The translations under genes and the position numbers were made by a program. A stretch of DNA of 64,000 nt from Bryopsis sp. KO-2023 (lineage: Eukaryota > Chlorophyta > Ulvophyceae > Bryopsidales > Bryopsidaceae): contig BSYQ01000006.1 of the NCBI GenBank assembly GCA_030272585.1, positions 5,791,001-5,855,000 on the forward strand, read 5' to 3'. This document shows positions 55,052 through 57,745 of this stretch, piece by piece. Below the pieces are notes generated by a model. It did no database searches and was not told the origin of the DNA. It saw nothing but the letters and a program-made list of their open reading frames with translations. How positions within the stretch are numbered: position 1 is the first letter of the stretch; each line of letters starts with the position of its first letter.

Positions 55052-55056
55052 GCATC
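55052..55056. repeat. Target-site duplication, left copy (GCATC)
   Basis: The 5 bases GCATC directly before the 5' LTR are repeated directly after the 3' LTR at 57,741-57,745, the length typical of LTR-element integrases. Confidence 0.85.
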
Positions 55057-55571
55057 TGTAGTTTGAAGGGGCAGCTTCAGCCAATCTGTCTGATCTATTA
55101 GTGTAGACTGGAACAGTGGGGTAGACGCCGGCGTTTGCGTCGGTCAGTGGGAACACCTTTTAGTCATCGTGGAAAGCGCGAGTTTGGCAGAGTCCCTGTT
55201 TCTGGCGCCTGGCGGCGTGTGGACTCTAGTGTCTACGCAAAGGCGTTTTCTGGCGTTTGGGGATGACAGGTGGATGAGTCGTGGACTTGCGTTCGTGAGG
55301 GGTGTTTTCTCTGCGGAGGTTGACGTTTCGAATACCCAGGCTGGGGTATATTAGTCGGGTTCATTGTTTGTGTTAGTCGAACGGGTTTGTTTAACAGAGT
55401 TTGTGTGGAAACTGTGTGCGTCCTATCAAAGCACCCACGTCTTGAGTTCGTAGCGTCGACTCGAGTTCGTTTTCGGTTCTCCTCCTCTGCGAAACTCCCC
55501 AACCACAACCTCTTTCCTCTCCAACTCCCGACACTCTCATTTACAATGATGATCACCAGCAAACAACTACA
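55057..55571 (+). repeat. 5' long terminal repeat
   Basis: 515 bp, TG...CA ends within the inverted pentamers TGTAG/CTACA. A TATA-like sequence (TATATTA) lies at about 55,347, placed to start transcription near 55,375. The ORF's first ATG falls inside the last 26 bases of this repeat. Confidence 0.92.
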
Positions 55572-57156
55572 TGGTTTCGGAGCTAAGGTGACGCCAGTCG
55601 GCGCAGGGAGGAGAACGGGAAAGTTGTTTCGCACGACCGCTGTTTGGGTAATGCTGTTTGCTCTGATGCACGTGGACAAAGTTCTGGAGGCGAGCGTGAA
55701 GGGGGGTGCGTGGACGTGGCTTTTCGGGTCGCGAAAAAGTGAGAAGGTGGTGATTGTCGACGGGTGCATATTGGCGGGGCAGCTGCGCAAAGCGTCACCA
55801 CGAGGAAGAGGTGACGATATTACAAACAGTCAAGTGTCGAAGCGTGCTAGTTTTATACCACATGACGACCTCGGAAAGACAAGGGCGCGCAGAGAAATCG
55901 ACAAGCAGAGGGATGGAAGAACAGCAGCGTCGACAGTCGAACAAGTGACAAGGATAGCGCGTATGCCGTTTAAACGGGACGTATCTCGAGAAAAGGTTCG
56001 TGGGGAAGACGTTTGTAACGTTAACAAAGAGAAAGAGATATTCAAAGTACTGATACGTCGGGGAATCCCGAGTGAACTCAGGCTGGAAAATTTGTGGATA
56101 GAGTTGGTGCGTGCTTTGAAGTCGGAGGTGCGTCGAGGGCAGGAATTTGATGCGTTTATGGTGCGCGCACTAGAGTTGGAGCACGCCTTGGAAGTGGAGC
56201 TGCGCCAAGTAAAGGATTCAAGGAAAGTCGTCGGTGAGATGACCACAGGATTTCAGGTTGACGGGAACCTACTCTTATGGATTGTTCTGGTTTGGGTCCT
56301 GACAAGGTTGGTGGCTGCGGGAAAGAGTGGGAATGAAGACCAGTGCGTAGAGCGCGAGGAGGTGACGCCAGCCGTTAACCTGGCTAGACTACAGAAAGAT
56401 GAGGGAACATGTCCAGCAGCCGTAGGTACCAGCAGTGAGCTGCCTGAGTGCGCACAATCTCAGGAGAGTCGCGAAGTATTTGAGTCACTGTCGGGAGACG
56501 GATTTGAAGATTGGACAGTGACCGGGGTGCTGGTGCCTGACGACCCAATGTGGAAGTTTCTGGGTTGTAGGCTTGCGCGAACGGTGGATGACGAAAGGGT
56601 GTCCAGCTGGGAGGATTATGATGGAAGTGAGCGAGCGCCCTGTGAGAAAAACGGAGCAGATGAAGTGGAGCAGAGTATCGACCACAGTTGGGCATCGACT
56701 CCAAAAGAAGCCACGACTAGGTCTGGAGCGAATCTATCGTGGTCTTCACAGACTGCGACAAGCAGCGCTGTGGCGAGTCCAACGCACACTGAAAGTGTTG
56801 TGGACTACGATCCTTACTTCCAGACTCAACACAGATTTGTCGGACGTAGAGTAAAGCGCTGTCGCAGCTCCCGGCAAAATAGGAGAAGTCGGAGGAATGG
56901 GAGGCGTTGCTACATTGGGAATTTAGCGTGGCGGACTTCGTGGCAGAGTCTAAAAGATGTGTTTCGTGGGTATGGAAGTGACGTCTATGCCAACGTTGTG
57001 CGGTCAGAGGATGGACGATCGAAGGGCTGGGGATTTATCGAGTTTCAATCTGCAGAAGAGGCCATAAAAGCTGTTGAAACGATGAACGGTATGGATTTGG
57101 GTGGACGACCGATACTCCTGCGCGAGGACCGCGAAGACACGCGTTGGTGGTCGTGA
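55546..57156 (+). CDS. RRM-domain protein encoded by the LTR element
   Basis: Single uninterrupted ORF of 536 residues starting at the first ATG of a doublet near the end of the 5' LTR. The frame is open further upstream but has no ATG. The C-terminal 80 residues form an RNA-recognition motif: RNP2 (CYIGNLAW, about 455-462), RNP1 (KGWGFIEF, about 493-500) and the closing AIKAVETMNGMDLGGRPILLRE. Two hydrophobic stretches lie at about 31-42 and 241-257, the second long enough to span a membrane. Between them is a charged, helix-rich stretch, and after the second comes acidic Ser/Thr-rich sequence; Arg-rich sequence precedes the RRM. I see no gag zinc knuckle or capsid landmark. The RRM looks host-derived (inference). 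It may bind the element's own RNA, or simply be cargo. Confidence 0.85.
   Translation: MMITSKQLHGFGAKVTPVGAGRRTGKLFRTTAVWVMLFALMHVDKVLEASVKGGAWTWLFGSRKSEKVVIVDGCILAGQLRKASPRGRGDDITNSQVSKRASFIPHDDLGKTRARREIDKQRDGRTAASTVEQVTRIARMPFKRDVSREKVRGEDVCNVNKEKEIFKVLIRRGIPSELRLENLWIELVRALKSEVRRGQEFDAFMVRALELEHALEVELRQVKDSRKVVGEMTTGFQVDGNLLLWIVLVWVLTRLVAAGKSGNEDQCVEREEVTPAVNLARLQKDEGTCPAAVGTSSELPECAQSQESREVFESLSGDGFEDWTVTGVLVPDDPMWKFLGCRLARTVDDERVSSWEDYDGSERAPCEKNGADEVEQSIDHSWASTPKEATTRSGANLSWSSQTATSSAVASPTHTESVVDYDPYFQTQHRFVGRRVKRCRSSRQNRRSRRNGRRCYIGNLAWRTSWQSLKDVFRGYGSDVYANVVRSEDGRSKGWGFIEFQSAEEAIKAVETMNGMDLGGRPILLREDREDTRWWS
55572..55583 (+). other. Putative primer-binding site
   Basis: TGGTTTCGGAGC directly abuts the 5' LTR. 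It matches the usual plant initiator-Met primer site (TGGTATCAGAGC) at 10 of 12 bases. The match to this organism's own tRNA cannot be checked here. Confidence 0.6.
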
Positions 57157-57225
57157 AAGGTATGGTCAGTCGGTGAAGTGATGTTTTATTTCGGAGTTTT
57201 ACACAGTGGATAGCAGGTGGGCACA

Positions 57226-57740
57226 TGTAGTTTGAAGGGGCAGCTTCAGCCAATCTGTCTGATCTATTAGTGTAGACTGGAACAGTGGGGTAGACGCCGG
57301 CGTTTGCGTCGGTCAGTGGGAACACCTTTTAGTCATCGTGGAAAGCGCGAGTTTGGCAGAGTCCCTGTTTCTGGCGCCTGGCGGCGTGTGGACTCTAGTG
57401 TCTACGCAAAGGCGTTTTCTGGCGTTTGGGGATGACAGGTGGATGAGTCGTGGACTTGCGTTCGTGAGGGGTGTTTTCTCTGCGGAGGTTGACGTTTCGA
57501 ATACCCAGGCTGGGGTATATTAGTCGGGTTCATTGTTTGTGTTAGTCGAACGGGTTTGTTTAACAGAGTTTGTGTGGAAACTGTGTGCGTCCTATCAAAG
57601 CACCCACGTCTTGAGTTCGTAGCGTCGACTCGAGTTCGTTTTCGGTTCTCCTCCTCTGCGAAACTCCCCAACCACAACCTCTTTCCTCTCCAACTCCCGA
57701 CACTCTCATTTACAATGATGATCACCAGCAAACAACTACA
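57226..57740 (+). repeat. 3' long terminal repeat
   Basis: 515 bp, reads as identical to the 5' copy, including the TATA-like site at about 57,516, and is followed by the right target duplication. Confidence 0.92.
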
Positions 57741-57745
57741 GCATC
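57741..57745. repeat. Target-site duplication, right copy (GCATC)
   Basis: Matches the five bases directly before the 5' LTR. Confidence 0.85.

What the first reader, a model, noticed from the sequence alone, without database searches (positions are those of the whole stretch)
55052..57745. Young non-autonomous LTR element whose only protein is an RRM RNA-binding protein
The sequence directly shows two 515-bp LTRs reading as identical, TG...CA ends, a 5-bp target duplication, a primer-site-like sequence and one intact 536-residue ORF with a C-terminal RRM and two hydrophobic stretches. Known non-autonomous LTR elements usually carry no ORF, or a gag-like one. An RRM protein as the sole and undamaged product is unusual. 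It suggests captured host sequence or a novel RNA-packaging factor that recruits enzymes from another family in trans (inference).
Basis: partly seen in the sequence, partly recalled or inferred. Interest (0 to 1): 0.85.

Follow-up and report, generated by a model that had tools for sequence, protein, structure and literature searches.

The report
Retrotransposon carrying captured host gene pieces
A recently inserted non-autonomous retrotransposon carries one long hybrid gene stitched together from pieces of at least two host genes, one of them (an RNA-binding domain) clearly copied from spliced RNA, and it probably borrows its copying enzymes from full-length relatives in the same genome.

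Summary
LTRs 55057-55571 and 57226-57740 are identical (515/515), with a GCATC duplication, a TGGTTTCGGAGC primer site and one 536-codon ORF (55546-57156). The ORF starts in the 5' LTR, at the first ATG after a TATA-like box, and reads through the primer site. A second complete copy lies on contig C16: internal region 99.3% identical, first 300 LTR bases only 87%, so U3s are exchanged. The RRM is captured host sequence: it aligns gap-free over 77 codons with a C4 host gene whose two GT-AG introns are cleanly missing, so it came through spliced mRNA. A second piece matches a host RabGAP-TBC exon. The TBC-bearing block, without the RRM, also sits in a different LTR element. Elements with reverse transcriptase (one about 5.3 kb, with both LTRs) share its U3 and 3'UTR-PPT and are the likely helpers, but neither its ORF nor its internal DNA was found in them. 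Selection on the ORF is at best weakly supported. Closest precedent: maize Bs1. A new variant of a known kind. That the RRM replaces the Gag nucleocapsid is not excluded but untested.

The parts
55052..55056 (.). target-site duplication GCATC, left copy
55057..55571 (+). 5' LTR, 515 bp, TGTAGTT...AACTACA
55347..55352 (+). TATA-like box in the LTR (TATATT); first ATG downstream of it is the ORF start
55546..57156 (+). 536-codon chimeric ORF; begins in the LTR and crosses the primer-binding site
55572..55583 (+). primer-binding site TGGTTTCGGAGC; the 15-mer ACATGGTTTCGGAGC occurs 305 times in the genome (0 for the reversed control)
55585..56736 (+). block shared with another LTR element on C1 (L038; 94-96% DNA identity, two frame-keeping length differences) and with two broken copies on C11
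55642..55698 (+). hydrophobic stretch 1 (residues 33-51)
55990..56106 (+). piece related to a host RabGAP-TBC gene exon (residues 149-187); the longer piece is in L038
56266..56322 (+). hydrophobic stretch 2 (residues 241-259)
56421..56555 (+). 135-bp in-frame segment absent from L038 and L044; origin unknown
56905..57135 (+). captured RRM (residues 454-530); the host introns would fall at 57013/57014 and 57060/57061
57157..57225 (+). 3'UTR and polypurine-tract-like end; stretches of 50-89 bases across its junction with the LTR match the 3' junctions of other elements at 81-90%
57226..57740 (+). 3' LTR, identical to the 5' LTR
57741..57745 (.). target-site duplication GCATC, right copy

Best explanation
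It is a young, non-autonomous LTR retrotransposon of a gypsy-like group. Its single ORF was built by capture of host mRNA during reverse transcription: a short, perhaps Gag-derived start, a degenerate piece of a TBC-domain gene, sequence of unknown origin, and at the end one RRM from a host RRM gene. SHOWN: anatomy, two complete copies, intron-less match to a host gene, the TBC match, the same block in a second LTR element, and relatives with reverse transcriptase sharing its U3 and 3'UTR-PPT. INFERRED: transcription from the LTR; translation from the first AUG across the primer site; copying and integration in trans by the related elements; host pieces and foreign U3s gained by template switching between co-packaged RNAs. 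The most likely role of the RRM protein is passenger: an RNA-binding protein translated from the element but not needed for its copying. I give about 0.25 that it helps the element in some way.
For: Anatomy. Second complete copy C16:1254693-1257376 with TSD CCTTT and identical LTRs; internal region differs at 11 of 1654 sites, ORF intact. RRM versus the C4 host gene: 77 codons gap-free across two GT-AG introns of 247 and 267 nt, 57 of 77 residues identical. TBC: E 3.2e-11 over 71 residues of the L038 ORF and 2.7e-5 over 51 residues of the window ORF in genome searches; the host exon carries Pfam RabGAP-TBC at 2.3e-13. L038 element: identical 146-bp LTRs, TSD GAGGT, same primer-site start. Helpers: of 19 rows for the 3'UTR-PPT-U3 query, 8 are 3' junctions of other elements, 3 of these 8 with a same-strand RT within 2 kb upstream; the C11 one has both LTRs and an RT-bearing open frame of 945 codons. 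U3 exchange: C16 LTR 86.8% in positions 1-300, 97.7% in 301-515; 3 of 8 single-LTR loci examined show the same split, 5 do not.
Against: No expression or mobility data. The helper assignment rests on shared 3' ends and U3 only: R-U5 and leader were not found in those elements (16 rows), and of the likely helpers only the C5 one shows the exact primer site in the listed part; the C3 one shows none although contig C3 is listed whole (the list ends in C5, so C6, C9, C10 and C11 could not be checked). The related host genes are only about 72-78% identical in DNA, so the exact donors are unknown. The TBC piece is short and degenerate, and intron loss could not be tested for it.
Confidence: 0.8

Rival explanations
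1. The chimeric protein is a working Gag substitute: hydrophobic N-terminus as in the group's own Gag, with the captured RRM in the place of the CCHC zinc knuckles, binding the element's RNA.
For: Gag of the related family F has hydrophobic stretches, then two CCHC-like motifs and a protease-like motif (read by eye; only sub-threshold Pfam matches); the window ORF has two hydrophobic stretches, then an RRM at the same end. The RRM scores 75.3 bits against 80.1 for the host relative, and the two copies rank second and third of the 150 RRM matches listed (of 255 candidates). RNP1 (motif name recalled) reads KGWGFIEF; the host relative has I where the element has the F. Frame kept across a 216-bp and a 135-bp difference.
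Against: Selection is weak: window versus L038 dN/dS 0.45 (0.26-0.84), but a shuffle keeping the mutation spectrum gives P 0.096 for the number of changed residues and 0.018 jointly with no stop. C6 versus C16: 8 nonsynonymous, 3 synonymous. The RRM changed more on the element side than on the C4 side with three of four outgroups (12:2, 5:1, 8:1, and 5:5). The L038 element lacks the RRM and has identical LTRs. Pfam finds no capsid-like domain.
Confidence: 0.12
2. Simple internal deletion derivative of an autonomous element; the RRM is part of that element's gag.
For: 3' ends shared with RT-bearing elements.
Against: The internal region finds 15 rows in the genome, none inside those RT-bearing relatives; of the 28 rows of the ORF search none lies there either; the RRM matches an intron-containing host gene.
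Confidence: 0.04
3. The ORF has become a host gene that happens to be flanked by LTRs.
For: Intact in 2 of 2 complete copies.
Against: Two young insertions with own TSDs and identical LTR pairs; the other rows are partial matches, so no complete copy outside an LTR pair was found.
Confidence: 0.04

Closest known systems
Bs1 of maize (LTR element with host gene segments in a hybrid ORF)
   Same: LTR element whose ORF fuses segments of several host genes, as described in passages of PMC13317346; host-gene capture also named in PMC7264820
   Different: Other host genes (ATPase, xylan endohydrolase, glucanase); here RRM and TBC, an ORF starting in the LTR across the primer site, and part of the ORF also found in a second LTR element
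TR-GAG elements (plants)
   Same: Non-autonomous LTR element with one ORF (seen in a search listing; definition recalled)
   Different: Here the ORF has no Gag or CCHC domain recognised by Pfam
Ty1 of yeast
   Same: Passages of PMC5454406 imply that the primer site lies inside the GAG frame (primer-site changes chosen to keep the GAG residues) and describe a mini-element mobilised by helper proteins
   Different: Ty1 is autonomous and copia-like (recalled); here a gypsy-like group and a captured ORF
LINE ORF1 with RRM (e.g. BNR)
   Same: Retroelement protein with RRM (title in the reference list of PMC3605345)
   Different: LINEs have no LTR and no tRNA primer site (recalled); this RRM comes from a host gene

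Membership tests
LTR retrotransposon | TG...CA LTR pair with target-site duplication | tested here: met
   second copy
LTR retrotransposon | primer site after the 5' LTR and purine-rich tract before the 3' LTR | tested here: met
   the primer tRNA was not identified
Non-autonomous element with autonomous partner | no pol; relatives with RT sharing LTR and PPT | tested here: met
   only U3 and 3' end are shared
Non-autonomous element with autonomous partner | mobilisation in trans | not testable with these tools
   no functional data
Bs1-like host-gene-transducing LTR element | intron-less host exons fused in one ORF | tested here: met
   RRM; TBC, intron loss not tested
Bs1-like host-gene-transducing LTR element | Gag remnant in the ORF | tested here: inconclusive
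   about 15 residues resemble the Gag-type start in L044, E 0.018 in a two-sequence search
TR-GAG | ORF is a Gag (definition recalled) | tested here: not met
   only RRM_1 in Pfam at E up to 1
TRIM | very short and without coding capacity (recalled) | tested here: not met
   2684 bp with a 536-codon ORF; the related 1.4-kb C19 element fits better
Internal deletion derivative of an autonomous element | internal region colinear with the parent | tested here: not met
LINE ORF1 RRM protein | LINE structure without LTRs | tested here: not met
   LTRs and primer site present

The most novel reading that the evidence does not exclude
A retrotransposon lineage is rebuilding its Gag from host parts: a captured host RRM has taken the RNA-binding place of the zinc knuckles, giving a non-autonomous element that packages its own RNA with a host-derived domain and takes only the enzymes from relatives.
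Probability: 0.1. Interest if true: 0.85.

Novelty: new variant of a known kind. Interest (0 to 1): 0.52.

Why it matters
It catches exon shuffling by an LTR retrotransposon at a recent stage, with a host relative, a sister element, probable helpers and two young copies all in one genome, so the order of steps can be tested. If the RRM serves RNA packaging, it would show how a retroelement can acquire a new nucleocapsid-like function.

Tried and rejected
Copia-type helper: the RVT_2 search gave nothing, but its controls were silent too, so it shows nothing. Intron reading of the 135-bp segment: the best-fitting breakpoints are not GT-AG; a GT-AG reading needs one extra substitution, so it stays open. 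Structure prediction of the whole protein: mean pLDDT 31.9 with 3 rows, unusable; no fold search was made. Primer tRNA: no tRNA in the window by a scan with the bacterial setting; not followed further. Other RRM-bearing elements: of 66 RRM matches on C1-C4, none lies within 5 kb of a primer site on the same strand and 3 lie within 5 kb on the opposite strand, against the 93 primer sites listed there (taken from the 150 RRM matches listed and the 100 of 305 primer sites listed); the two known copies on C6 and C16 lie outside that subset. First protein calls had a frame error and were repeated. A paper on Bs1 (PMC2899935) is not held. The organism was not identified.

Full report
OBSERVATION. 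The two LTRs are 55057-55571 and 57226-57740, 515 bp with no difference, ending TGTAGTT...AACTACA and flanked by GCATC. The primer site TGGTTTCGGAGC follows the 5' LTR directly. The ORF runs from ATG 55546 to the stop at 57156, 536 residues, with RRM_1 at 456-523 (E 1.6e-19) and no other Pfam family at E up to 1. It is the first ATG after a TATA-like box in both complete copies. In two other elements of the group, on C11 (L039, L044), the different sequence before the primer site also supplies an ATG in the frame of the same primer-site peptide HGFGA; that this sequence is an LTR end is inferred. In L038 and in the C19 mini-element the frame is open there but holds no ATG. Ty1 of yeast has a similar overlap of primer site and GAG (passages of PMC5454406).

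COPIES. The genome is 91 Mb in 28 contigs, unnamed. The ORF search gave 28 rows: 2 complete copies (C6, the window, and C16:1254693-1257376), 8 partial rows on C1 and C11 that stop near residue 398, 1 weak row on C1:4842354, and 17 rows to the RRM alone. The C16 copy has TSD CCTTT and an identical LTR pair. Its internal region differs at 11 of 1654 sites (7 changed residues). Its LTRs match the window's at 86.8% in positions 1-300 but 97.7% in 301-515. Of 8 single-LTR loci examined, 3 show this split and 5 do not. U3 segments have therefore probably been exchanged, as expected from template switching between related RNAs. One search listed 41 LTR matches (40 of 60 candidates scored), a lower bound. 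Five single-LTR loci (L045-L048, L052) show matching 5-base ends by eye, and a sixth (L051) lies in a run of G.

WHAT THE ORF IS MADE OF. (a) RRM. The closest host match is a gene on C4 (L042). Its exons, joined at GT-AG borders (GTGCGT...TTTCAG, 247 nt; GTGAGC...GTCAG, 267 nt), align without gaps to residues 454-530: 57 of 77 residues identical, 77.5% in DNA, dS 0.95, dN 0.148. The element lacks both introns, so the capture passed through spliced mRNA. (b) TBC. The L038 ORF matches an exon at C1:4842303-4842506 over 71 residues at E 3.2e-11, the window ORF over 51 residues at 2.7e-5. That exon and the next carry Pfam RabGAP-TBC at 2.3e-13 and 1.9e-17. The piece is degenerate, and the window lineage lacks a 216-bp stretch that includes part of it. 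(c) The block 55585-56736 is also in L038, an element with other LTRs (146 bp, identical pair, TSD GAGGT) and no RRM, and in two broken copies on C11. L038 begins with a Gag-type N-terminus shared with a family I call F. (d) The 135-bp segment and residues about 398-440 have no other match in the searches made.

HELPERS. A member of family F (C4:714523) encodes two CCHC-like motifs and an LIDTGAEVNIL protease-like motif, read by eye; Pfam gives only sub-threshold protease and zinc-knuckle matches. It also has an open RT stretch (RVT_1, E 6.2e-24). The RT query listed 140 matches (139 of 1670 first-look candidates scored). Of the 100 primer sites listed (of 305), 35 have a listed RT within 6 kb downstream on the same strand, three of them the same RT; controls: 1 upstream, 0 opposite strand (with the rows on C1-C4 and the covered part of C5). 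A second family, G (RT 47% identical to F's), shares the window's U3 (73-76% over about the first 300-360 bases) and, across the 3'UTR-PPT-U3 junction, 81-90% identity in 8 of 19 rows. Of these 8, three have a same-strand RT within 2 kb upstream (C11, C3, C10), four at about 9-11 kb and one at about 18 kb (positions). The C11 element has both LTRs (about 5.3 kb in all) and an RT-bearing open frame of 945 codons. The exact primer site is listed for the C5 element; the C3 element shows none although C3 is listed whole, and C6, C9, C10 and C11 are beyond the listed part. The window's R-U5 and leader were not found in G, and neither its ORF nor its internal DNA matches there. So G is a relative at the 3' end and the probable enzyme source; I find no sign that it is a parent whose interior was deleted.

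SELECTION. The intact ORF alone proves little, since identical LTRs mean a recent insertion. C6 against C16: 8 nonsynonymous, 3 synonymous, dN/dS 0.80 (0.19-3.58). Window against L038 over 335 codons: 0.45 (0.26-0.84). A shuffle of the same 50 substitutions with their spectrum gives P 0.096 for as few changed residues, 0.146 for no stop, 0.018 for both. Both length differences keep frame. This is a hint only. In the RRM, with one C1 domain as outgroup, 12 residues changed on the element side and 2 on the C4 side; three other outgroups give 5:1, 8:1 and 5:5. The domain still scores 75.3 bits against 80.1 for the host relative.

HOW IT MOST LIKELY WORKS. Transcript from the LTR; a tRNA primer at 55572; copying and integration by enzymes of related elements; protein made from the first AUG. 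Only the sequence features are shown. My best estimate is that the protein is a passenger. The bolder reading, a Gag substitute with an RRM instead of zinc knuckles, has a suggestive layout but no direct support.

COMPARISON AND NOVELTY. Bs1 of maize is the closest precedent (passages of PMC13317346 and PMC7264820). Searches for an LTR element with a captured RRM listed 10, 1, 0 and 0 papers. None of the listed titles and abstract starts describes one; in the only one of them looked into (PMC3605345, passages) the RRM is in the title of a cited LINE paper. The library is partial. I call it a new variant of a known kind.

Noticed in passing
L067 (C4:714990-716090) with P0002 residues 1-171: The Gag-type ORF of family F has several strongly hydrophobic stretches, the first like a signal peptide (by eye), before its CCHC-like motifs; a membrane-seeking Gag would be unusual for a gypsy-like element.
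   Followed up: partly
L056 2445-3834 (C19): A complete 1.4-kb mini-element with 283-bp identical LTRs and TSD CAGTG shares both ends with the window element; its longest ATG-started ORF is 97 aa, on the minus strand.
   Followed up: partly
L038 5687 (C1:7465183): A second primer-site sequence lies inside the L038 element, with an upstream peptide like that of the C11 copy in L039, so L038 itself looks composite.
   Followed up: no
C6:2578105-2623172 (contig coordinates): LTR and RT matches recur at a spacing of about 11.94 kb, suggesting a tandem array of elements.
   Followed up: no
C3:8186263-8188123 (contig coordinates): Three primer-site sequences on one strand within 1.9 kb, upstream of one RT match.
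   Followed up: no
L044 5504-7231 (C11): A Gag-type start is fused in frame to what looks by eye like the end of a non-LTR reverse transcriptase ORF (no Pfam support at threshold), with repeats nested around it.
   Followed up: no
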